From Toxoplasma gondii ME49 (taxonomy: Eukaryota > Apicomplexa > Conoidasida > Eucoccidiorida > Sarcocystidae), in NCBI RefSeq assembly GCF_000006565.2, contig NC_031474.1, positions 3,507,662-3,571,661 on the forward strand: a stretch of DNA of 64,000 bases. The letters run 5' to 3'. The notes beneath the pieces were generated by a model, which saw nothing but the letters and a program-made list of their open reading frames with translations, did no database searches and was not told the origin of the DNA. Every line of letters begins with the position of its first letter. The stretch's first letter is position 1. Of the stretch, positions 2,309 through 50,122 are shown piece by piece. A program made the position numbers and the translations under genes.

Positions 2309-5300
2309 CTACCGCGTTGCTTCGGTAACCACACGAGGCACTCCCCATGCATAAGGGGGCATTCCTTGAGGGCCAGCGCCTGTGGACACGCCCACTGAAG
2401 GGTAGTAGTAGGTCAGATGCGACGTGGATTGCGGGAGCACGTACCGCCTCATATTCTCACGTCGAGACGGCGCACGGCTGCCGAAGAGCTGCACCAGTCG
2501 TTTCTGGATCGGTTGAATGGGCTCGAGAATTGCAGCAGCTGCCTCCTGCACTCCGTCAGCCGCTCGTCGCGCCGCTGCCCGCGCGGCTTCTGCAGCAGCT
2601 GCAGCCGCAGCAGCCGTCACTGCGGACATGTCGGACGAGTTGCCAGGTGCAGCGAGTCCCCATCGCTCCTGAAGCCGCGTCTGCAGACAGGCTTCCTTCC
2701 CGGTTCCTGGTGGCTGAGGCCAGTGGCAAAACTCTGGTGGGCTCTCAAGTGTCGCCACGTCACCCCTGCCTTGACGTGTGGGAGATGCCGCGGGACTGGA
2801 ACGAAAAACGCAGGAAACCTGGCTTGCAGAAGCCGCCGCCGGATGGCCTGTCTGCACACCTGTCGTTGCGGTCCGGGTGCGCTGTTTCTCCGGTTTCCCC
2901 GTCCTACGCGCGTTCGTTTTTACGCCAGAAACGGACGGGCTTCGTTCAGACCCTTGTTCCGGGCAGTCCCCCTCACGGCAGCGGTGGAGCTTCTGTTCTT
3001 TCTTCACTACAGCGCGATCTTCTTCCTCCTTGCGTTTCATCCTTTCGCGCTCGACCTCTTCCCGCTCAAAATGCTGTTGTAATAGCGCTTGGCGCTGCTT
3101 CTGCAGCTGCCGGCGCTGGTGTCGGAGTTCTAGAACGCGTCCACTCACGGAGGCAGCATCTTCCAGCTCCCACGGTTCCTCTCTCGGACTCTCAAATTTC
3201 ACCCAACCCTCCGTGCCGCTGATGGTGCTGTTTTCCGGTTGCTTTCCTCGTTCGTTGGAGAAAGACTCTCGTCTTCTGTCCGGCTGAGAACGCTCACGCT
3301 GAAAATCGCGACCACGCGGCCTCAGCAACGGGGAAAAGCCCCTCTCGCTCTCAACAGGCTGGCAAAATTCAACAACTGGTGCAGAGGGATTCACTGGAGT
3401 CGTTCCCGCTTGCACGGGAGCAACTGGGGAGGGAGGGGCGCAAGTGTCCGAACTCGCGGATCGAGGGGGGCCTAAAACCACACCTGGCACTGAGAGCGGA
3501 CTGAGCCACGACGACTGCTGCGGGAAGGCAAACAGCGGCCGGTAGGTCACGTATGGGCCTGGCTGGCTATGAGGAGGCACAGGAACTGTGACAGAAGGCT
3601 GTCCCGCGCGGGCACCGAAACGAGTCCGGTAATAGACCCGCGGGACCGGCGACGCGGAAGAGGACGAAACCGTCGTGGCATTCGCGTCAAAACCCACAGG
3701 CTGGGAGCCTACGATTGCGCCGACCTCAGCACCGACCGTTGAATGCAACGACGTCTGAAGAGGCCTGGTAGCGGCGCGTGGCCACCCTTGTGAAGCTGCG
3801 CGAGGACCGCTCGCGCCGACGGCCGGGGTAAGGGGAACTGAAGACGACCGTATTGCTGCCGGGACGGAAACAGTCGGAAGAATCGGGTATTCGGTAGCAT
3901 GCATTCCGTGGGGAGACGAGATCGTCGAGGGTGGGCCGCCGCAGCAGACAGCTGCGCAGAGCCCGCCTAGGGTGGTTTTCGAGCTGGAAAAAGGGACGCC
4001 TTCCGATGGTCGAGAAGCTGCCGGCGAGACTGTGGCCACCGAAGCGGCTTGTCGGCTCATGTGCTGGACAGGAACTGAAAAGGGGCGCTGAAGACCTGGG
4101 TAACTCACACGTGGTGCACGCGATACAGGCGTTGAAGACACGACTTTCCCTTGTTTCTCTGTGCAAATCAACGGCTGTTTCCCTGCGAGCGCTCGAACGA
4201 CTCGAATCGGGCTCGGACCCGAAGCCGGGCCGAGCCTAGGGTCGGGGGAGACTCGCGGCATCGGTGGCGTGGTAACAGTTTTGCTAACATGCACAGACAC
4301 AGGGAGGTTCGAAGTCTGTTCAGGAGGCGGTCCTCGGGGCGCCCCACCGACCTTGAGGGCGAGTGGAGCGGCTTCCGATTGGTCTTTGGACGACGGGGCG
4401 GGGCTTGAAGAAAGCCGCGTCGTTGTGGCCGTCGGGCGTTCTGCTGTTGCGCAGACACCCCGAACGAGTGGACTCGAGGCGTGCGAAGCAGCAGGGCTGC
4501 TCACAGATGACGGAAGGGCAGGTGAGGCTGGCTGCAGTTTCGATATCTCCGTGGACACCTGGAGACCTGTCTCGTTGTCTCGCGTCGGGGTCAAAGTCGC
4601 TTTCTGCAGCTGCAGCTCTGAGAAGCCTTTAAGCAGCTTGGCATGCTGGTTCTCGAGGATATCGCGCTCTCGCTGGAGCTGCGCATATACATTTGAAGCT
4701 TCTTGTCGCTGAAGAAGATCCTGCTTCAACTGCAGCTGCTCTTGCTGCTGCGCTAGAGCCTTTTGGCTGTTCCGGAGGCTCTCCAACTCCCGCGAGACAA
4801 CCGCCTGTTGTTCCGCCTGCTTGGCCAGCAGCTGAAGCAGGTGCTTCTGTTCCTCCTCAGCCTTTGCGGTCGCCACGGCTTGCCTGAAGACAGCGCTCCC
4901 CAGCGCGTCTCGCGCAGACTGCAGCGCTGCCGCCTCTTCTTTGGCGGCTGCCGCTGCAGCCGCAGTGAGAACATCATTGGCAAGAGCGGCCGAAATTGGA
5001 GTGCGTGCCGAGAACGGATACTCGAGATCTGCACTCAGCAGCGCCTCTTTTCCAGCGCAAACCGTGCCGGAATCTTTCCAAAGGTGTGGGCTGCCCCCTC
5101 CATCTGTGGACGCAAGACCCTCGCGGAGGGACGAAACCCCGGCAAGACTCGAAGTGACGTTTTTGCGCTCCGAAACTGCGCCAGCCTCAGCGCCAAAGAA
5201 ACTTAGCTCGTCACCTCTGCTGCAGGGGGACACAGAGTTACCGCTAGATCTCGCGTTCAACAGGGCCACAAGTTGCGCAGTCGACAAAAGCGGCCGCTTG

Positions 5301-5755
5301 GAAACATCCGTGTCAGCGAGCGATCGGTGCCGCCCTCTTTGGGGTACCCTCCGCAGCGGTCGACGACTTCCCCTGGAAGCGATTTCCTGCAAGGAAAGAC
5401 TTTCAGGGTCTGCATCGAAGTTGTCGCCTTCCCATGTGCCGCGCCCGGGCTCCGGTGGGATAACCGTTGCCAAGCGGTAGCTGTTGAAGCTATTGCAACT
5501 AAGAAGGGCCGCCTCGCATGCAGCGGCTGTGGGGGAGAGGGCAGCTTCAGTCAATCTGTCGCGCGTGCCCACACTCCGTCCGCAGCGGTTCTTTCGCCGT
5601 GGCTCATGAGCGTCGCCGGCCTGCCTGCCTCGGAGAATCGAGGTGTCGAGGGTCGAAAGTCTTGCATCGTCGCGACGGCCTGCGCGAGACGACACGCTGC
5701 CGCCACAGAGCTCGTCCAGCTGTTCGGCGAATAAGGATATCTCAGAATGTGCCAT
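2309..5755 (-). CDS. Large Gln-rich coiled-coil protein, unrecognised
   Basis: An uninterrupted minus-strand frame. The first in-frame ATG is at 5755 and gives about 1148 residues; the frame stays open upstream to 5974, but only through a GTG codon, so I do not use that part. I do not recognise the protein. Order of regions: a basic/acidic N-terminal third; an Ala-rich segment followed by a heptad-like Gln/Glu/Leu coiled coil (around 5.0-4.6 kb); a long Pro/Ser/Thr/Val-rich unstructured middle; a second charged Arg/Glu/Gln helix (around 3.2-3.0 kb); an Ala-rich stretch; and a Tyr-rich tail. No enzyme motif is visible. The Gln-rich helices suggest a scaffold or self-assembling role, which is inference only. 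No intron is needed in the frame, unlike most genes in the window. The length of the frame is the main evidence that it is a gene. Confidence 0.75.
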   Translation of the reverse strand: MAHSEISLFAEQLDELCGGSVSSRAGRRDDARLSTLDTSILRGRQAGDAHEPRRKNRCGRSVGTRDRLTEAALSPTAAACEAALLSCNSFNSYRLATVIPPEPGRGTWEGDNFDADPESLSLQEIASRGSRRPLRRVPQRGRHRSLADTDVSKRPLLSTAQLVALLNARSSGNSVSPCSRGDELSFFGAEAGAVSERKNVTSSLAGVSSLREGLASTDGGGSPHLWKDSGTVCAGKEALLSADLEYPFSARTPISAALANDVLTAAAAAAAKEEAAALQSARDALGSAVFRQAVATAKAEEEQKHLLQLLAKQAEQQAVVSRELESLRNSQKALAQQQEQLQLKQDLLQRQEASNVYAQLQRERDILENQHAKLLKGFSELQLQKATLTPTRDNETGLQVSTEISKLQPASPALPSSVSSPAASHASSPLVRGVCATAERPTATTTRLSSSPAPSSKDQSEAAPLALKVGGAPRGPPPEQTSNLPVSVHVSKTVTTPPMPRVSPDPRLGPASGPSPIRVVRALAGKQPLICTEKQGKVVSSTPVSRAPRVSYPGLQRPFSVPVQHMSRQAASVATVSPAASRPSEGVPFSSSKTTLGGLCAAVCCGGPPSTISSPHGMHATEYPILPTVSVPAAIRSSSVPLTPAVGASGPRAASQGWPRAATRPLQTSLHSTVGAEVGAIVGSQPVGFDANATTVSSSSASPVPRVYYRTRFGARAGQPSVTVPVPPHSQPGPYVTYRPLFAFPQQSSWLSPLSVPGVVLGPPRSASSDTCAPPSPVAPVQAGTTPVNPSAPVVEFCQPVESERGFSPLLRPRGRDFQRERSQPDRRRESFSNERGKQPENSTISGTEGWVKFESPREEPWELEDAASVSGRVLELRHQRRQLQKQRQALLQQHFEREEVERERMKRKEEEDRAVVKKEQKLHRCREGDCPEQGSERSPSVSGVKTNARRTGKPEKQRTRTATTGVQTGHPAAASASQVSCVFRSSPAASPTRQGRGDVATLESPPEFCHWPQPPGTGKEACLQTRLQERWGLAAPGNSSDMSAVTAAAAAAAAEAARAAARRAADGVQEAAAAILEPIQPIQKRLVQLFGSRAPSRRENMRRYVLPQSTSHLTYYYPSVGVSTGAGPQGMPPYAWGVPRVVTEATR

Positions 5756-7311
5756 TTTGCACTCTGCAAAAAAACGCGAGTCCTGAAAGGGCAAGGCCGC
5801 CTGAGCTAAACGCGACCAGTGCCGCTCGCCTTGCCGGTAGCGTCCATTGCCGAGCGCTGTCAACAGCAGAAAGAGTATCGCCGGCAACACTGCTGGGCAC
5901 TCCGTGATGGCAATCGTCGACAACGACGACTTGCATGTGGGCACTGCACGGCTACGGAAAGACACACGGACCACCTATTACGGGCGCATCGTTTGGGCCG
6001 GTAGCGCGCTTGGTGGTTCCCCGTTTTACGAAGAAAATTGTGGCAGTTTGTGGAATCGATTGTTGTCTTATTCACACGCCTCGTACAGCTGGAGTAACCG
6101 TAGGTGCAACAGCTCTGAGCCAGCGGATTACACTCTGACGAAACAAAGGACCTGTAACAAGCGAATCACGATGCTCTCGTACAAAAACGGGCAACTAAGT
6201 CCCTTGGTCCAGTAGCAAAGGCACTGCAGGCTTGCCGCTTGAAATATCAACTTTAGAACACGTACCAATTGCTACGCGCACGTATCGATTCTCTTAGTCG
6301 AGCTGAGTTTCCCCTCTGCATCCGGCGAAGGTTTCGGCCCGTAATTGCGCAGGACCTCTCTGGCTAGCTGCTTCCTGTTTCGAGACACTAGATATTGCAT
6401 GCCATCCTGCTGCATGGAACGGAGGTCAAAACAGATCTCTTTGTCGCGGTGGTCTCGAAACAATTCGCTGATGAACGCATCCTAAATTGTTGGATTCTTT
6501 GGAGATGCGTGCGAAATAAAGGGGGTTCGAAGGTCGGGAGGACCTGCCCGGCCTCCACCAAGCCTTTTCACGGACACTTTTTGCCGGCAAGGGTTGCGTC
6601 GCATGCAGTGAGGGGCGCTCCGAAAGAAAAAATATCCAGTGCTGTGTTTGATGGAAAAGAATCAGTGACTCAGATGTGTTGTCGTCGAAAGTATCTCTTC
6701 TGTTAGCGAGACCTGCCTTAATTTTTTGTGGCACCGTACCGACAACTGGCATGAGTAATCGGGACATCCTCGACTGACACACCGCGTGATTCTTAGTCAC
6801 AATGTGGTTCCACGAAGTCAGAACTGAAGCGGTGAATATAATGAGCGAGTATCTGGGACTCCTACAGTAAGAAATGGGTGGGCAGCACAACGGCTTCGGT
6901 GCTACCATTGAAATCAGCGGATTGGAATCTCCTCCGACCATTTACACTGAGGCATTCGAAGTCCGCTACTCTACTCATTCACGATGGCGATGATTAAAAA
7001 CTGCTTTGTTGTGCTAGGAGTGTCACAGATTCGCTTCAGGTCTCTGTGATATGGCTAGTCATCTAACACTGCATCGGGCACGACTATCTTTTGTGTGTAG
7101 GTCTGCGAAGGTCTTGTGTTGGTCGATAGTGTGGACATATCTCGCGGCCAGCATGTATGATAATAGATATGCGGCAAATATTATGGTGTACGAAAACTCT
7201 ATTGAGGTTGTACCTGAGAGAGCGGAGCTCAACGATTGCCGATCTTCTTCGAGGAAAAGGATCGATGGGAGTGGTGGATGTATGAGGCAACGGCATATTT
7301 GTGTTCCGTAG
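5756..7311. other. Intergenic/5' flanks of two divergent genes
   Basis: This segment lies between the start of the minus-strand coiled-coil gene and the first visible exon of the plus-strand IQ gene. A plus frame starting with an ATG near 7153 may be an upstream exon of the IQ gene, because the IQ exon enters in phase 2 and so needs a 5' exon. No donor in the right phase could be fixed. Confidence 0.4.
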
Positions 7312-39300: not shown

Positions 39301-40774
39301 TCCACTGTCGTGGATACCGAGAGATCGACCTACGCTTCGGATGTAGGTTTGTATGAATAGATCGACGGCCACCGACGCGAGGAACGTAAAGAGAGACAAA
39401 TAGACCTAAGTAGTCCGTGGAGACTAACAGAAGACCGGAGACTACCACTGTGTGAAGTTCCATTCGTTATACCCTGAATCTTGAACATAGACGTTCTTGG
39501 AAGGGTCGATGCTGAAAGGACTTCTCTACGTTTCTCTCCTCCCTCTGGGTGTACGGGTTACCTCCTCTCTACTCGTCTAAGTCGCGTAAGAATGCTCTCA
39601 AGATTTCCTCGAATGGCGTGTGGTTTATCTCTGTGCTCGAACACTGAATTCGCCTTTCCCTTTCGCTTTCAAAGTTTTCACCTAACACAGACAGGACCCT
39701 CTTGAGTGTGCCTCGGAAGGCGCAGATTTTTGCAGCTCATCAAGACCCTTACACGTTTCCTGAGGAAGACAATGAATGAATTAGCGTCTCGACTGTTGCA
39801 TACTGTTACATATTCCGTTGGTCTCCATGTAACGCCGTTCATTCTCCCGTCTGCGCATACACTCGCCGATAGTTGCAGGTCGTCCACTTCAACACAATTC
39901 TTAAAGATCACCGAATGACGAACTGACACCTATGCGTTGGTCAAGTTTCATTTGTTTCCACTATTCCGCTTCTCACCGCTTTTCTTCGGACCCTGTGAAA
40001 ACGTCAAGACACAGGTCGTTTCGATGCATGCAACGGCGCCTTTGCAACGCGTTCCAGAGGAACGCACATCTGTCTCGTCCTTCTAAGGCAAACACCCCCC
40101 AATCTCTTTCCTCGGCTTCTCTGTTTTGTTTTTCGCAAAGAGACGAAAGCTTTTCGATGCATTAGTTGGCTTCCAACCGAGAAGTAAATATTCTGAAAAT
40201 GCGGTGATTTAAGCGACGATTGCTCAGAGCACGAGTGTGCAGAGATGCAGACTCTTTTCGCAAGAAGCTTCTCAGCAGAAACTGCCGAATCCTCGTAAAC
40301 GGAACAGAAATCCCTCTCCTGCTTTTCAAGAGACATGGAGAAACGATGAGACGCCGGAATCCTGGGGGCGCCTGGCGCCCTCCCTTCTCGCGATGTCTCT
40401 TTCCTTCTCTCTCCACTGCGTCGGCTTTCACAGTTCGGCTGCGGAAAAAGCGAGACCGCACGGCGGAAAGGGAACCTCCCCCCAGGAAATTGCTTCACTC
40501 GCCTTTCGCTGCTGGATGCGCGAGTGTATGCTGCGATGTACAAACACCTCTCCACGCGACGGCGCTCTCGCTCGCGAGTTGTCGACGCGAGACGGAACCT
40601 GCAGATTCAAGAGAATCAGACAGACGCACAAAGAACGGAACGCACAGGGAAAGAAACTTCCCGGAAAGAGATACACAAAGAGGAACTGCTTTCTTTGAAT
40701 CCGAGAGGCGTTGTCGCTTCGAGAGAATTCGCCGCCGAGGCACCAAGGCTGCTTGTTGGGCGTCTCTGTTGCTC
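36349..40774. other. No supported gene; long upstream region
   Basis: About 4.4 kb between divergent genes. The best frame is plus 38418-38882 (about 155 codons from an ATG), with no family match and no splice neighbours. Frames at 37.4-37.8 kb and 40.0-40.6 kb overlap on both strands and look like shadows or untranslated sequence. The interval probably holds promoters and 5' untranslated sequence for the HA-repeat gene. Confidence 0.4.
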
Positions 40775-43700
40775 ATGGGTCTTGTCTTGCGTGTGAGTTT
40801 TGATTCTCCGATTTTCCCTCGACCTTCTGCGCTTGAGGCTTCGCGTTTTGTCTTCGGCGCAGCTCACCGAACTTCTCGCACCTGCCATGTCAGGCCTTCT
40901 CGCTGTCTCTCTCGTGTCTTCTTCCGCGCCTCTCCAGTCTCTTCTCTCAACCCCCATCGGCTGTTTTCTTCGTCCTCTTCTTCCCGACCTCGTCGCCTTC
41001 CTCCTCTCCTTCCTCAACAGGACTCGATCTTCTCCTGGGCCTCCGCCTGTCTCTCCGCCTCTTCTCTTTGCCCGGCCTGCCTCTCCCCTTCCACGAAGCC
41101 TTTCTCTCTGAGGCGTCTCGCCTTCCTCCTCCTCCCCGCCTTCCCCCGGACGCCCTCGCCGCCCCACACTGTCTCCACTGTCTCCTCGCGTCTCTTCTCT
41201 CCGGCCTGCTGCCGGGCCTCCTTGCCCGCCTCGTGGCTGCCGCGGCGCACGTCCGGCCTCGCCGCTGCGGCTCCGGCGCCGCAGGCCTCGCCGGCGGACT
41301 TTCTGCCTGAGTATTTCCACAATTATCCCGTCTCGGACGATGCAGAGACGGAGACCGAGTTTCGCCCCGGCGTCACAGCTGAGATGGAGAAGGCTCTGCT
41401 CGGCTACGAGTTCGGCGTCCGCTTCAGTCGACCCTCGGACGACCGTTACGTACCGGGATTCACCCAGAGCCGCATGGCTGCCGCCGTTCGACCCCACAAG
41501 TCGCTCGCCGCCGCCACCGTCACCGACGCCCTCGGGCCTCGCCCCGGCCCCGCCCCGCGCCCAACGGGCCCGTTCGACCCGCCGGAACCCCAGGGTCACG
41601 GAGACACCTCAGAGACACCCCACACGCCAGACCCCGCGCAGCAGACGGAGACACAGACACCGTTGAGAACTTCACGCACAGACGAGGAACCTTCTTCTTC
41701 TGCGGCTTCCTTGAGGTTTTACACCCGCTTTCCGTATGATGCGGAGGCCGCAGGAGCGCCGGCGGGAGATGCTCGCGAGTTCGCGGCAGCTGAGAGGCGA
41801 CGAGAAGAGGAGAAGAAAAAAGCAGAGAGAGAAGAAGACAAGGGATTCCAGGTCGGACTGCAAATCAAGCTTCTCCGGGAGGGTGTCCTCTCCATTATGG
41901 GCAGCGGAGACGGACATCTCGCCAGCAAGACTCGAGGAGAAGACGCCGCAATCCTCTTGAAAAAGAAAGTCCCTGTTCACAGACTGAAACTCTTTCAGTG
42001 GGACAACCTTGGTGAGTTTCAACTGCACGGATGCTCTGGAAAGGATCTAGAATCTTGTAGATGGAGATGACTCTTTATGGCGTAAATGCGATCGAATTTT
42101 TCCTTTTTCTCTTCCTCTTGGGCTCTCGTCTTTCTCGCTTGTCGGTTGCCGCTTGCCCTCTTCCTCAGTCTCGCTCTTTGTCACTCTTTCTTCTCGTCTC
42201 TCTCCTCGTGTCTGTTTTTCTATCTCTCTCTCTCTTTCTCTGCCCTCGCTCTTCCTCTTCCATCGCTCTTTCCCTCCTTCCATTCCTTCTCACGTCTGGC
42301 TTCCTCGCGTTCTCTCTCTGCCTCTTGCCTTCTTTGTGTTCACGACTTCTCTTTTCTCGCCGGTCTTTGCCTCAGAAGTCGCGTCTGCGGGCGGGCATCT
42401 GCCGACGTTCCACCTGTCGCTCGTGCGCGCCGTGGAGCTCGTGCGAGCTTGCTACCTTCACTTCGGACCTTCGAAGGCCCCGCGGGGCTTTGCAGTGCCG
42501 CCGCCTTCGCGTCGGGACCCTCTGGAGGAGGACGAAGCGACAGAGGCTGCAGCGCGCGCTCTTCTGAACGAAGAAGGAAACGCGGACCAGGTTCTCGAGA
42601 AATTCCGCGACAGACGCGAGACGCGCGCCTGGCCGCCACACCTGGTCGGACTCACCCTTGGAGAGCAGGTGCGATCGAGCGGGATAAAACGAGAGGCGGA
42701 CAGCGTGGAAGAAGAGGCAAGGAACGGCGATCAAGGGGAAAGAGACCCAAAAAGGGAGAGGGGAGGCGACCGGGAAGGGGAAGGGGAGGAGAAAATGGAG
42801 AGGTTGAGGAGAAGGGAAGTTTTTCGTGACGCTTCTCGTGTCTCTTGTTCATCGTTGCGTTTGATGAGTCTGTCGCGCTTCGCTCGTCTCAGTCTGGTCA
42901 TGTTTCTCTCGATTTTCTGTCTCCACGCGCTTCACATTGATCTGCTTAACTTGTCCGGACGTTCCCGTTTTTCTTCTTGACAGGAAGACCTTTTGAGGCG
43001 ACACAAAGACACTCTCGTCGAAGATCTTCCCGCAGCTGCCGACGAACTCCAGAAAGTTGGTGGGAATTTCTTTCGCTCGATTTCGCTCGTTGTCTGCCTT
43101 CTTTTCCACGTTCCACTCTACGGGGGTTGTTCGTTCTGTTTCTCTCTTCCTCTCCGTTTTGTTCTCTTCTGTGCCTCTCGCTTTCCTTCCACTTTTGCTT
43201 TTCCTTCTCTTCCTTTCTTTCAGCTGCCTTCTCTGCTCCCTGCGAGTTGGGTGTCTGTGCCTGTAGGATTCTCCTGGGAACCCACGGAGCGTGCAGAAGA
43301 CGAAGAGAAGGAATTCAGCATTTTCCTCGAAGCCTTTGCTGCCTACTTGGTGCGTCTTCCCTATTGCTTTCTCTGCCTTTCCTGTCTTCTCTGTAAAGTC
43401 ACTCTCTCTCTTCTCTGCAGTTCCGCTTTCCTTCGTCTCTCTGAAGTCTGCGTTCTTCTCTGTACCTCGCTTTCCTTCGCCTCTCTGAATGTTTGGTGCG
43501 ATGTCTCTCACCTCCCTGTTCTCTTCTCTCGCTATTTCTCTGTCGCGCTTCTGTCCTGCGCCTGGAGTCTCTCGCTGCACCGCCTCCTTCGCTGTTTTTA
43601 GGCGGACAAACGCTCTGGACCAAAGGAGATTTCTGTGAATCCCTCCGGCGAAGTCAGCCTGGACCCGCTGCACCCATCGCCTGCCGTCGCGCCGCCTCGC

Positions 43701-46700
43701 GAGCCCCCGCGGGTGTCGCCGGCGTTGCCGAGCCGTCTGCCGGCTACCCACTTGCCGCCTCGGTTCTTCAAAATTCCTTCGAACGCGTCTTATCCAGAGT
43801 ATCTCTGGGGATATCCGCTGGGAGCAGTTGTTGCGGAGCTGCGCAGAGGAAGAAAGTTCCTCGCTCTCCCGCATGCAGTCCAGATGCTGCTTGCTGTCGA
43901 GTTCCCCGTCCACACCATCGACGGAGTTGAAAAGGTTCTGTCGAGCCCCGAAAAAACGCATACAAACAGTGCCGACACGGTTGGAGAGGAAACCGCGACA
44001 GAGAGCGAGGACCGATTTCCCCCAGCAACTCTTGAAGACGAAGGTACTGAAAAATGTTACCGGTGTATGTATATGTATGCATATGCATGTATGTATATGT
44101 ATATATATGTATATGTATGCATATGTATGTTTATATTTGCACATGTACGTACGTAGGTGTATGTATGTACGTATGCGTATGCATGTTTGCGCATATGTAT
44201 GTATACGTATGCATATATATGTATAAGTATGCATATGTATGTCTGTATATGTTTGTACGTATATGTTTGCATGTATATGTATGTTTGTATGTGTATGCAT
44301 GTGTCCACATCAAATGGACGTATCCATGCACACATCCGTTTCCAACTGTATGTTTACACATATAAGTGTATATTTCATGGGTGGAAAGATTTGCGGGAGT
44401 GAACGGAGGCCCGTGCGGAAGTCTGTTCTGGAGTTCGCGGGAAGGCTTTGTGGCTGCGGAGACCGCGTTTGAGTTTCGACGGAAATTAAACCGTCAGCGC
44501 TTTGCAGCTCTTTCGTTCCTGCGAGACTTGGCGCCGGCCTCCTTTCTCAGGCTTCGTCGAGCCGGCGCCCTTCGAGGAACTTCGCGCCCAAGCAGAAGCC
44601 GGCGAGGACGGTTCTGGAGGCGAACGCGCCGGTTCGGAGAAGACCGGAACGGAGACCGAGGAGACACAAGACAGAGAAACAAGAGGAATGGGAGGAGAGA
44701 GAGAAATGAGCGGAGAGAGAGGAGATGTAGAAAAGGACGCAAAGAAGGCATTTGTAGAGGAACTGGATATTCACGAACTTCGCAATCTCCTGGCCGATGT
44801 GGTAGATTTTGAGGAGGCGGCAGAGGCATCTGTTTCGGCGTCGAGCGGCGCAACTCGTGCTGCAGATCCTGCAAAGCCGAGGCTGGCGTTTCCAGTAGGT
44901 TGTTTGTTCCATTTGTTTGAGAAAGAATTCAGGAAATGTTTGTTTTTCTCTCCCTTCTTCTCTTTTACACTTTCCGCCCTTTGTTCTGACCATGCTTTCT
45001 TCTTGTCTTCTTCCGTGTTTCTTTTCTTCCCGACAGGTTTTTCTCCATTCGCTTTTTTTTCTTCTTCTGAGGTTTTCTTTTCCTCGCTCCTTTCCTCTCC
45101 CTTCTCCTCTTCTTCTTTTTCTCCTCCGCTCCTCTCCATTCTCCACTCCTTTCGTCTCTTTCCTGCTTCGGCGTCTCCGCTTTCTCTGGTCGTTTTCTTC
45201 TTCCTCTCTCCCCCACTCTCGTTGCCGCTGCCTTCCTGTTGATTCTCTCCGGCTTCTCACTCTCCTTTCGCTCTGTCTGTTTCGTCTGCTCCCCTCAGGT
45301 GTCTCCGTACTACCATTTGATTGCCCCTGCGGAGTTTCCCTTGCCGCCGCCCGCGCGAGTGCCCGCCCCGCGGCGCGGTCTCCGTTGGGAGCTGCAGGCT
45401 CTCCAGGACCGGCTTATAAACGAAGAAAGGGAGCGGGGAGAACAGGTGACTTTCGAGGACCGAGAGGCGGGAGGCAGCGCGAGGACAACTGGGGGACCAG
45501 TGCCGACAGAGGAGGCGACGCAGACAAAAAAGAGAGGAAAGGGACGGAAGGCGAAGAAGACTCGGTCGAGGTCGGAGAAAGAGGAGAAAGAAGGAATAAA
45601 GGCAGTTTCCTCTGAAGAGAAGAAAGCGCTGCCGTTCTTAGCAGACCGAGCTCTGAGGTATCCTCACACGCTCTTCTCTCGCAGGAGAACGGAGGGCGGC
45701 TTCCACTACGCTTTCGACAAATGGAGTTTCGACGACGTCGTCGAAGCCATGCAGTACTTCAACGTATGTCCTCCGTGCGAGGAAGAAACGTTGCTTGGAG
45801 ACACTTGACTTGGTGAAGAGAAATACACTCGTACTCTGTAACGCAGCCGAGGCCGGTCCTGAGCAAACGCGAAAAGTCTCGGGTGTCGATGTGGAAGAGG
45901 GATGTTTCCTACGCGTCCTCTCTCGATCTCTCTCGCGACCGCCGTCGTCTCAGTACTCGTCTATTCTTGCTGTACCGCTCTGCACCCATACATATACACT
46001 TACATACGCATATTCATATCTATCTATCTATCGATCTATCTATATAGATATAAAGATATAGAGATATATTTATATATTTATATATATGTATATATACGTT
46101 TATAAATGTATGTTGTATGCTATTCGTGTGCGGATTGCACTCGTTTCAGGCTTTCGGCTTCTTCTGTTTTTCAGGACATGTACCGAGGAGTCCATCGCGA
46201 AATCGGAGGCGAAGAGCAGCTGACGTTCAACGTGCTACCCAGAGGGTGGTGCATTCCATCACGTGAGAACTCCACAAAAATTTGAATAAAATTCTTCCTA
46301 GTTACTCACTTCGAACCTTTCGCCCTTTTGTCCATCTGTCATTCTGTGCAAGAGGCACTGCACATTTCTTCAAAACATTTATATACATATATATATGTAC
46401 ATGTAGTTATATATGTATATATATACATATGTATATGTATGTATGGCTATGTATGGCTATGTATACATATATATATATATATATATATATGCATACACAT
46501 CTGGTTATCTACATGGATATGTGCTAGCCTGGTAACACTTGTGAAGAAGACCCTTTGTTCGTTTACTGTCTGTTCCCTGCCACCCTTATATTTTTCTGTG
46601 ACTGGCACACGATTCACTTCGTATTACTACTTCTGAATATATATATATATATATATGAGTATACATATATATATATGAGTATACATATATATATATATAT

Positions 46701-46704
46701 GAGT

Positions 46705-46741
<37 letters not shown>

Positions 46742-46742
46742 T

Positions 46743-46777
<35 letters not shown>

Positions 46778-48180
46778 TATGCATATATATATATATATAT
46801 GAATATACATATATATATGCACGGGTGTCTCTACTTGCATACTCTCTCCTCATCTGCGTATCAGTCTTTTTATTTACCACCTGTATATTTATATGTACAC
46901 GCATGGATATATTCACATATCGTCGTGTATGTTTATATGCAAACAGACATATATATATATATATATAAATGTGTCGTCATTCATACATATATGATGATAA
47001 GACGCGTTTTATATGTTTATGGGCGTTCCATCGATTTGCCTCCTTGCTTCTTCGAATCCAGCGAATCTACTTCCGTTTTTGGAGTGGCGTTTTTACAAGG
47101 GAAGCCATGCATGCGCACATGGATAGCTCCGTCAAAGAAAAAATCCATCGATGTCTTCATCTTTTAAAATGTCGATTTTCTCAGGTGTTGGACTTAGTGT
47201 CCGCATCTCCAGACGTGAAAGCCTACCGTGCACACTTTGGGGGGGAATCTCATGTTTGCTGAGAGGCGGTCGCGAGCTTCCACCAGTCAACCAGATTGTC
47301 TTGGTCTCACAGCCAATTGAGAGACGTATAAAAGCGTTTATTTATTTTCGTGTCTATCTGTATGGGCGTCCGCAACCAGTAGAGGCTATCTCTCTATACA
47401 TCTCCCTTTTTATCTCTCTACGTACATCTCTATCTATCCCCATCTATCTCTCTGTTCAGACATGCCCATGTTTGTTTGTGAATGCATGTATATGTAGCCG
47501 AGGTGGAAGGCGCGTGTGTTTCCTGTGTACCTCCTTTTTCTGGAGACAGAAAACCGCTTTCTTCTCTTTGTCTAATGTTGAACGAAGTCTCTCGCTTGCT
47601 CATGTCCCTGCCCTTCCTCTCGATTTCCCACAGCCGATCATCGAACATTTCCAAAACTCTTTTCTCCCTTCTCGAGTCTGCCTGCCTCTCCTTCTTCCTC
47701 TCCTTCTTCTTCTTCCTTTCCTTCTTCTTCTTCCTCTCCTTCTTCTTCTTCCTCTCCTACTCCTTCTTCCTCTCCTTCTCCTCCTTCTTCTTCCTCTTCT
47801 TCTCCTCCTTCTCCTTCTTCCTCTTCTTCCGCTTCGGTGCCGGAGTTTGCGGAGTCTCTGTGGCCGAGAGAGTGGTGGGGAATGCCTCTAGGGAAGTACC
47901 TCCACGCGTTTCGTATCGGCGACATCGACGCGAAGTTTCATCCTCGGCGTCGACCGGTCCTCGATCGCTTAGGCCTTACCTGGGGTGACCCTCTCCAGTA
48001 TCTGCACTTCACCTGGATGAAGCTTATCAAGGCTATGCGGTGGTACGACACACTTGTCCTCTCCTCTTGTAGCTCCACTTAGCGAAAGTCGCGCGTCGAT
48101 ACATTCGCGGAAACGTCCTCACATCACGAAGCGATCGATTTCTACAATTCCGCATGCATGCATATCTATCTATCTATCTT

Positions 48181-48254
<74 letters not shown>

Positions 48255-48327
48255 TATGTACATGTGCACTAATACATACCTTCGCATCTTTCTATCCAGA
48301 CGTCTTCGGGACCTAGCGCGAATGGGT

Positions 48328-48372
<45 letters not shown>

Positions 48373-50122
48373 ATAGGCGTTTCTGTGTATTGCTGTCACT
48401 TTATTTTTATCGATCTTTGTTTGCGTGTACGCAAACCTATCAGTGTCTTCTTTTACGATCACCTCCACTCTCGTCGGGTAGCAACAGACCTGCGTTTTAG
48501 TCTGAGTATCTTCACACTTGTGTGTGAAATTCTTGCTATTTGCGTGTGAGCTTGTTGCAACTTGTGCATAGATATCGAGAATCTGTGAATAGAAGCCTAG
48601 GAACTTGTGTTGAGATCTTCTGAAATCTGTGAATAGAAGCCTGGAAATTTGTGTTTAGACCTTCTGAAATCTGTGAATAGAAGCCTAGGAACTTGTGTTT
48701 CGAGCTTCTGAAATCTGTGAATAGAAGCCTATGAATTTGTGTTGAGATCTTCTGAAATCCGTGTATAAGTACTGCGGAATGCGCAGTCGAGCTCATGAAG
48801 AGACGCGCTGAAGTTTTTGCGTACGACCACCCCACACGTTTCGCTGTCTCCAGGAGTCTCCTCAGATGAGGGGTGGGAAGGATTCGGATCTCTCGCTTCG
48901 CGACGCGAATTAACGAGGAAAATTTAGACTGAGCAGCTTGCGTCATCAGCGCCATCGCACTGAACGTGATTCTCGCTTTCGACTTCTGTCTGAGGTTGTT
49001 CTTGCATCGCTCATGCGCAACAGGCATCAAAGGATCTCGGCGTCTCTTTGTCGCACAAGTCGAGTCTTGAAGTGTAGTGGTTTCGCATGTACGCGTCTGA
49101 TTAAAAAAGCAGACACCAGCAGCAGTTTGCCAGGAAGTTTTCCCCAGACGTTTTTACGCATGCGAATGGAGAGACATGTGTGCAGCTGCTTCTCTGCCTT
49201 TGTGTTGTCTTCGCTCCTCGGTTTTTTTCTCTTCTTTCAAGGTGGATGCTTTTTCGCGGCCAGCCTCTCGAGCAATTGTTTCCGTGGACTGTCATTCCTG
49301 ATTTTACTTTCGTTGCCAACGTGTGCAAGCCCGAGGAGGTTCAGGTAAGAAAAGATGTCACGTTCTCTGTTTCCTATCCCTTTCGCTGTGTCTTCCGCTT
49401 CTCTCGTTAAACTCACTATGTCTGTCTACTCTTTTTCCCTCCTTCTCTTTCGTTCCATCTATCCTCACTCTCTTCCTCTCTCTTGTCTCTCTTTTTTCTC
49501 TCTACTTCCTTCTCCTTCCCTCTCTCCGTCTCTCTACGTCGATGTCGCAGCCTCGTTCTTCCTCTCTTAATCTCTGTCTTACTCGCTTCCTTTATTACCT
49601 CTTCTCTTCTCCTCACCGCTCTCTCTCTCCAAGTCTGCATTCTGCTTCTCTCCCTCTCTTTTCGGTGTAGACGCACGCGTACTGACGGCTGTGTACTTCA
49701 GTCTCTGTGTCTTCCCTCTTTTATTCCGCAGTTTCTCCAAGTAAATCTAGGATCAAAAGCGGCTTTGCATGTGCGTGCACTGATGAAGCAACTGAACTGC
49801 ATTGCCCCACAGTTGTTTCTCTTTTCTCTTCTCTCCTGCCTTCTCTTTATCTCTCTCGCTCCTTTCCATCTGTGTTTCTTCGCTCTTTCAGGGCGTAAAG
49901 ATCGGATATCTTGTGCACATGGCGCGACGTCAGGAGAACATTCTTTATCACTTTTACCCTAATCGGTTCGAGATCTACAAAAGACTGAATCTAAACATCT
50001 TGCCGGCAGACAGACTGCTCCTCGATTTTCCTTTCAAAGTCGAAAAAGAGTCTTTGCCGCTGCAAGGCGAGCTCGGATACCTCATCCCTCATGTTCCAGA
50101 AGAACAGAGAGAAGATGTGTAG
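40775..50122 (+). CDS. Multi-exon protein with tandem degenerate HA-like repeats, presequence-like N-terminus
   Basis: Eleven exons: 40775-42011, 42376-42668, 42984-43059, 43267-43349, 43602-44043, 44551-44894, 45299-45763, 46175-46262, 47634-48042 (or 48039), 49242-49344 and 49892-50122 (TAG). All phases agree, giving about 1256 residues. The start [20 protein letters not shown] leads into an Arg/Ser/Ala-rich, acid-poor stretch typical of mitochondrial presequences. A motif then recurs: a helix with FG..., a Pro-rich link, P-x-x-x-x-G-x-x-L-G, R-x-G, and L..GF.W. Copies are [13 protein letters not shown] with [50 protein letters not shown] with [31 protein letters not shown]; and weaker ones near [14 protein letters not shown] and [13 protein letters not shown]. 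This resembles the helicase-associated (HA, PF03457-type) repeat. No helicase motor is present. The role is unknown; organelle nucleic-acid binding is inference. Confidence 0.8.
44060..44380. repeat. Degenerate TGTA/GCATA microsatellite in an intron
   Basis: Imperfect GTATATGTATGCATATG-type units fill much of the intron between the exons ending 44043 and starting 44551. Alternating purine-pyrimidine makes all reading frames open as Met/Tyr/Cys/Ile runs, which are not coding. Confidence 0.85.
46014..46960. repeat. Cluster of TCTA, (TA)n and GAGTATACATA minisatellite tracts
   Basis: A TCTA/TATA tract lies at 46014-46108. Further (TA)n tracts lie at 46376-46495. Between about 46636 and 46825 at least six units of TATATAT..GAGTATACA repeat. 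The tracts flank the short exon 46175-46262 and fill the following intron, so they are intronic. Confidence 0.85.
47690..47835 (+). repeat. TCTTCCTCTCCT-type pyrimidine repeat, predicted to encode Ser/Pro
   Basis: Imperfect TTC/TCT/CCT repeats. In the exon model beginning at 47634 they are in frame as Ser and Pro codons leading into [15 protein letters not shown]. They could instead be an intron pyrimidine tract if an acceptor near 47847 (GCCGGAG) is used. Confidence 0.7.
48168..48369. repeat. CTAT/(CT)n/(TA)n tract and (AT)n tract in an intron
   Basis: A compound CTAT-(CT)n-CTAT-(TA)n repeat is at 48168-48257 and a pure (AT)n run is at 48331-48369. Both are inside the intron between exons ending 48042 and starting 49242. 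Confidence 0.9.
48583..48765. repeat. 44-bp minisatellite, four copies
   Basis: CTGTGAATAGAAGCCT recurs at 48583, 48627, 48671 and 48715, exactly 44 bases apart. The rest of each unit is a variable (A/T)GAA(C/T)TTGTGTTGAGATCTTC. It is intronic in the HA-repeat gene. Confidence 0.93.

What the first reader, a model, noticed from the sequence alone, without database searches (positions are those of the whole stretch)
40775..50122. Tandem HA-like repeat protein with an organelle-type N-terminus in an apicomplexan
After splicing, the protein shows at least four clear and perhaps six copies of a roughly 90-150 residue unit whose core is P-x4-G-x2-LG-x-n-R...L..GF.W. Seen directly: [35 protein letters not shown] and PEEVQGVKIG, each followed by a helix and, in two copies, a GF.W/GL.W end. 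Known: HA (helicase-associated) repeats of this kind occur in bacterial helicases and in stramenopile proteins. Here they have no helicase motor and follow a presequence-like stretch. This could be an undescribed organellar nucleic-acid-binding family.
Basis: partly seen in the sequence, partly recalled or inferred. Interest (0 to 1): 0.78.

Follow-up and report, generated by a model that had tools for sequence, protein, structure and literature searches.

The report
Plastid-type HA-like repeat protein, Toxoplasma
A Toxoplasma gene whose public models are cut in two encodes one protein with four diverged helicase-associated repeats, related to a diatom protein with the same kind of repeats and a similar leader; it may work inside the parasite's relict plastid, but its task is untested.

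Summary
Eleven exons (40775-50122; start probably upstream, 40346) encode one protein, locus TG_202180, found as single proteins in Neospora, Besnoitia, Cystoisospora and Cyclospora. It has four repeat units, three clear and one degenerate, not six.

Pfam HA does not hit the parasite proteins directly. The HA link is still sound: a coccidian profile finds three proteins carrying Pfam HA, one from a diatom, and a model built only from those proteins' units gives 88.8 bits on the Toxoplasma protein against at most 3.5 in shuffles. Units 3 and 4 pair, with moderate support, with the last two units of the diatom protein and its metagenome relative; the N-terminal units do not sort clearly.

The leader looks more like plastid (apicoplast) than mitochondrion: a hydrophobic segment, then about 170 residues rich in S, R and P and poor in acids, in four of five coccidians. 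The protein is not a chain of the PDB copy, which holds mitoribosomal L14 matching this genome. Nucleic-acid binding is inference only; the repeats are nearly uncharged.

The parts
40346..41302 (+). Leader: upstream start (40346), hydrophobic segment [17 protein letters not shown] (40751-40801), then 167 residues rich in S/T/R/P and poor in D/E
   Evidence: P0002 starts here; a hydrophobic segment recurs in Neospora, Besnoitia and Cystoisospora
40775..42011 (+).
42376..42668 (+). Exon 2; lead-in helix, FAVP loop and first half of the unit 1 core ([13 protein letters not shown] from 42630)
42984..43059 (+). Exon 3 (unit 1 core continued)
43267..43349 (+). Exon 4 (unit 1 end, GFSWEP)
   Evidence: frame and orthologs fix the acceptor
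43602..44043 (+). Exon 5; unit 2 core [11 protein letters not shown] from 43791
   Evidence: 28.2 bits
44551..44894 (+). Exon 6, acidic linker
45299..45763 (+). Exon 7; block FPVSPYY...RRGLRW, charged linker, helix [14 protein letters not shown] that opens unit 3
46175..46262 (+). Exon 8; [12 protein letters not shown], the 'VP' loop of unit 3
47634..48042 (+). Exon 9; serine-rich insert, then unit 3 core [11 protein letters not shown] from 47861 (the strongest unit)
   Evidence: (30.1 bits)
49242..49344 (+). Exon 10; opening helix and loop of unit 4, KPEEVQ at its end
49892..50122 (+). Exon 11; unit 4 core GVKIG..., C-terminus and stop
   Evidence: (0.9 bits in Toxoplasma, 5.6 in Cyclospora)

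Best explanation
The locus is one gene, with no second copy found, for a nuclear-encoded plastid (apicoplast) protein. After removal of a signal segment and a transit-like stretch, the mature protein is a set of four diverged HA repeats (opening helix, [FW]-x-[VI]-P loop, WP....G..LG turn and helix, RR..LD.LGF.W helix) spaced by disordered linkers. It has no motor and no catalytic domain that we could find, so it most likely acts by binding: a scaffold that holds plastid nucleic acid or a ribonucleoprotein or gene-expression partner. Shown by computation: one gene model through all exons in related genera, four units, relation to HA-repeat proteins of a diatom and of two unnamed metagenome records, matching order of the last two units. 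Inferred from the leader: plastid location (about 0.65). Inferred only from what HA repeats are thought to do (recalled): the nucleic-acid or gene-expression role (about 0.4).
For: Single protein in four other coccidian genera. Distant hits P0008 (9.6e-15), P0009 from the diatom Stephanopyxis turris (3.2e-9) and P0010 (6.5e-5), all over the Pfam HA cut-off and with no helicase domain in Pfam. Independent unit model and shuffles; profile-profile scores 41, 66, 69 and 25 for units 1-4 against at most 15.7, 17.8, 14.3 and 15.5 in 30 column shuffles each. Coccidian unit 3 groups with unit 4 of P0008/P0009 (91/83) and unit 4 with their unit 5 (93/82). The coccidian C-terminus aligns best to units 4-5 of those two (97.6%, 131 columns; next best 84.1%, 46 columns). 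Long insert before the unit 3 core (22-77 residues) and before their unit 4 core (59, 63), 4-5 residues in their other units. Leader in 4 of 5 coccidians: hydrophobic segment, then 167-187 residues with 0.5-3.5% D/E and net charge +8 to +16, while the rest is -14 to -32. P0009 also opens with a strongly hydrophobic segment (2.27) followed by AASF, like the diatom plastid motif as recalled.
Against: No direct Pfam HA hit on any coccidian protein. In the whole-protein comparison the coccidian unit 1-2 region also aligned best to units 4-5 of the relatives (95.4%) and only then to their units 2-3 (83.0%), so collinearity of the N-terminal half is not shown; tree supports are below the starred level, and unit 5 of the two relatives groups at only 55/61. 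Unit 1 of coccidia also has a long insert (41-67), without counterpart. Repeat blocks are close to neutral, and P0008 and P0009 are very acidic, which does not favour nucleic-acid binding. The leader is not seen in Cyclospora P0006, whose N-terminus differs from that of P0007. In Toxoplasma the hydrophobic segment is 135 residues from the upstream ATG. No SignalP-type tool and no chance control for the leader were run. Structure models are poor (pLDDT 53.5 and 49.3) and fold searches gave nothing.
Confidence: 0.45

Rival explanations
1. Same protein and same plastid location, but a protein-protein scaffold (for example of a membrane, import or metabolic complex) that never touches nucleic acid.
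For: Near-neutral repeat blocks; P0009 and P0008 without their leaders at -96 and -113. No enzyme family in Pfam for the coccidian proteins or in NCBIfam for the seven proteins scanned.
Against: The nearest named family is attached to helicases (recalled). P0010 is not acidic (+11). No partner is known.
Confidence: 0.3
2. A mitochondrial HA-like protein.
For: Arg/Ser-rich, acid-poor leader; no localisation data seen.
Against: A hydrophobic segment precedes the basic stretch in four species. The protein is not a chain of the PDB copy, although that copy holds L14 chains matching an L14 gene of this genome (9g6k, named uL14m, and 9i05). This speaks only against a resolved mitoribosome subunit.
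Confidence: 0.12
3. A secretory or single-span membrane protein; the 'transmembrane protein' names in public records would be right.
For: Hydrophobic segment of 17 residues, mean hydropathy 1.8-2.0; names of P0001 and P0005.
Against: The acid-poor basic stretch behind it looks like a transit region; the diatom relative has a similar leader.
Confidence: 0.1
4. Two genes, as in the two strain models P0002 (ends in intron 8) and P0001 (begins in intron 9 sequence).
For: These public Toxoplasma models are split.
Against: Neospora, Besnoitia, Cystoisospora and Cyclospora models run through; the cut would fall inside unit 3 and would leave exon 9, with the best unit, in neither model.
Confidence: 0.03

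Closest known systems
Pfam HA, helicase associated domain (PF03457), as in diatom protein P0009 and metagenome proteins P0008 and P0010
   Same: Helix, VP loop, G..LG turn, R, LD.LGF.W end; tandem copies; matching last two units with P0008/P0009 and a long insert before the last but one
   Different: Coccidian units fall below Pfam detection; four of them, widely spaced by linkers; no acidic C-terminal tail such as P0008 and P0009 have
2KTA, solved domain of a putative helicase
   Same: Weak profile match of 10 of the relatives' 14 units, E 0.06, covering the core and the LDK.GFVW end
   Different: Named a helicase; no match from the coccidian sequences themselves
HA2 domain protein TGME49_295070 in PMC5823475 (outline and passages seen)
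   Same: Name, and pulled down with an apicoplast thioredoxin
   Different: HA2 is a different domain family (recalled); no call here relates them

Membership tests
Pfam HA (PF03457) | Direct profile match over the curated cut-off | tested here: not met
   No HA match at E <= 10 in the Toxoplasma protein, its pieces or P0002-P0005, nor at E <= 1 in P0006 and P0007
Pfam HA (PF03457) | Homology to sequences that do match the profile | tested here: met
   three HA-bearing relatives, 88.8 bits against at most 3.5 in shuffles
Pfam HA (PF03457) | Tandem copies | tested here: met
   Four units, three of them clear
Pfam HA (PF03457) | Three-helix HA fold | tested here: inconclusive
   Helices fall in a repeating order in the units modelled, but pLDDT is 53.5 and 49.3 and fold searches are empty
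Pfam HA (PF03457) | Attached helicase motor (bacterial members, recalled) | tested here: not met
   No helicase family in the coccidian proteins or in P0008-P0010
Apicoplast proteins with bipartite leader | Hydrophobic signal segment followed by a basic, acid-poor stretch | tested here: met
   4 of 5 coccidian proteins; not seen in Cyclospora P0006; no dedicated predictor and no chance control
Apicoplast proteins with bipartite leader | Observed in the organelle | not testable with these tools
   Supplementary tables could not be opened; no paper found by gene name; of 12 papers holding '202180' and Toxoplasma one passage was opened
Apicomplexan mitoribosome | Chain of the solved Toxoplasma mitoribosome | tested here: not met
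   with the positive control

The most novel reading that the evidence does not exclude
A plastid-specific HA-repeat family, inherited with the red-algal plastid and kept from photosynthetic diatoms to non-photosynthetic coccidia, in which HA repeats have been freed from the helicase and serve as a stand-alone binding scaffold for plastid gene expression or genome upkeep.
Probability: 0.3. Interest if true: 0.7.

Novelty: new variant of a known kind. Interest (0 to 1): 0.52.

Why it matters
Much of the apicoplast's protein content has no known task (recalled). A protein kept across coccidia, with a probable diatom ortholog that also seems plastid-bound, is a candidate for plastid upkeep that predates the loss of photosynthesis. 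It is hidden by a split gene model and by lying below Pfam detection. It would also give HA repeats, whose function is guessed from helicases, a motor-free case to study.
Full report
What is there. Eleven exons on the + strand, 40775-42011, 42376-42668, 42984-43059, 43267-43349, 43602-44043, 44551-44894, 45299-45763, 46175-46262, 47634-48042, 49242-49344 and 49892-50122, give a 1256-residue protein. The donors and acceptors are GT/AG. Where more than one choice was open, orthologs decided: exon 4 and the end of exon 9. The organism is Toxoplasma gondii or a very near strain: P0001 (strain VAND) is 100% identical over 35% of its query and P0002 (strain ARI) 95% over 78%, in a genome of 65 Mb. 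The locus number comes from P0002's name, TGARI_202180A.

One gene, split in public models. P0002 ends by reading into intron 8; P0001 begins in intron 9 sequence. Exon 9, which holds the best repeat core, is in neither. Neospora, Besnoitia and Cystoisospora models run straight through, as does Cyclospora. Identity of the C-terminal part is 280 of 309, 229 of 276 and 199 of 264 to the first three, against 58 of 169, 42 of 144 and 48 of 168 in the leader.

Repeats. The core P-x4-G-x2-[LIV]-G occurs four times in the protein; shuffles average 0.06. A hidden Markov model made from 14 units of P0008, P0009 and P0010, no coccidian sequence in it, finds four units in Toxoplasma and totals 88.8 bits. 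The five coccidian proteins score 56.3-88.8 bits; of 200 shuffles of each, 49-73 returned a score, the highest 3.5. The fourth unit is weak by that model in all five (-0.3 to 5.6 bits) but is supported by profile-profile score (25.0 against at most 15.5 in 30 column shuffles) and by its grouping with unit 5 of the relatives. Unit 1 is also weak in two models (2.5 in the mis-spliced P0003, 11.1 in P0004). Two further stretches that could have made six are not supported.

Relation to HA. Pfam gives no HA match for the parasite proteins, only sub-threshold chance matches. The bridge is P0008, P0009 and P0010: found by the coccidian profile at 9.6e-15, 3.2e-9 and 6.5e-5 in a database of 5.8 billion sequences, and themselves at 92.9, 85.9 and 65.8 bits to Pfam HA, cut-off 28.4. 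The profile query was a rearranged concatenation, so the comparison was repeated with an HMM of natural, unrearranged proteins, which aligned unit by unit with the three. Of ten of the relatives' units tested one by one, eight match Pfam HA at E <= 1, best 1.2e-10, and their profile touches the solved domain 2KTA at E 0.06. P0009 is from the diatom Stephanopyxis turris; P0008, from an unnamed metagenome, is 44% identical to it; P0010 is also unnamed.

Orthology, not only shared repeats. In a tree of 30 units, coccidian unit 3 joins unit 4 of P0008/P0009 (91/83) and coccidian unit 4 joins their unit 5 (93/82); support is moderate, below the starred level, and one unit of P0010 sits next to the first of these groups. 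The coccidian C-terminus aligns to units 4-5 of the two over 131 columns (97.6%), the next best place being 84.1% over 46 columns. In the whole-protein comparison, however, the region of coccidian units 1-2 also prefers units 4-5 (95.4%, 137 columns) over units 2-3 (83.0%, 122 columns), so the first half is not sorted. Before the core of unit 3 lies a long insert (77, 34, 22 and 26 residues in the four coccidians examined), as before unit 4 of P0008/P0009 (63 and 59), while their other units have 4-5 residues there. Unit 1 of coccidia also has an insert (41-67) without counterpart, and the last unit of P0010 has 27. Whole-protein orthology is therefore probable, not proven.

Leader. In four of five coccidian proteins a hydrophobic segment with basic residues before it is followed by 167-187 residues with 22-41% S+T, 0.5-3.5% D+E and net +8 to +16, while the rest of the protein is net -14 to -32. 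The fifth, Cyclospora P0006, shows none, but P0006 and P0007 have different N-termini. The segment was picked as the most hydrophobic window of each leader and no chance control was run. From established knowledge (recalled), this is the order of an apicoplast bipartite leader; a mitochondrial presequence has no such segment in front. P0009 has a hydrophobic start of mean 2.27 followed by AASF, and P0008 has a weaker one (1.48) ending in MAF; these resemble the diatom plastid motif (recalled). P0010's is weak (1.19) and without such a motif.

What it does. No enzyme or motor domain was found. The models show helix, short turn, helix, helix in the units modelled, but the coccidian model was made with the relatives' rows in its alignment and both are of low confidence (mean pLDDT 53.5 and 49.3; ten-residue blocks of the first three units of P0009 mostly 64-87), and no fold match is worth quoting. 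Net charge of the repeat blocks is -5 to +5, which neither proves nor favours nucleic-acid binding. I therefore hold the apicoplast location as likely, a binding-scaffold role as the default, and a gene-expression role as the leading but weak guess. The protein is not a chain of the PDB copy, while an L14 gene of this genome finds chains 9g6k (named uL14m) and 9i05 there at about 1e-63. That these entries are Toxoplasma mitoribosomes is inferred from score and name, not read from the entries.

Limits. The three large protein searches score only candidates sharing most words within a length range, so absence of Plasmodium, Eimeria or chromerid hits means little. No localisation predictor, RNA data or supplementary table was available.

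Noticed in passing
window 46262-49242: Public Toxoplasma gene models for this locus stop in intron 8 (P0002) or begin in intron 9 (P0001), so exon 9 is missing from both; orthologs are single proteins.
   Followed up: yes
P0003 residues about 570-600: The Neospora model looks mis-spliced across unit 1 (KNASPLDCRCCLCCLFAVFLLS stands where the unit end should be).
   Followed up: partly
window 48580-48767: A 44-base tandem repeat, 4.3 copies at 88% matches, in intron 9.
   Followed up: no
window 46037-46111, 46380-46490, 46637-46818, 48331-48369: Long AT-rich microsatellites in introns 7, 8 and 9, which may explain the broken gene models.
   Followed up: no
window 2312-5974 (-) and seven other open stretches of 311 aa or more: Open frames elsewhere in the window match no Pfam family at E 0.01 (8 of the 14 of 300 aa or more were examined), the largest of 1221 aa.
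   Followed up: no
G000 contig C1959, 10198-10554: The held genome may include the apicoplast genome: the contig numbered last carries an L14 gene.
   Followed up: no
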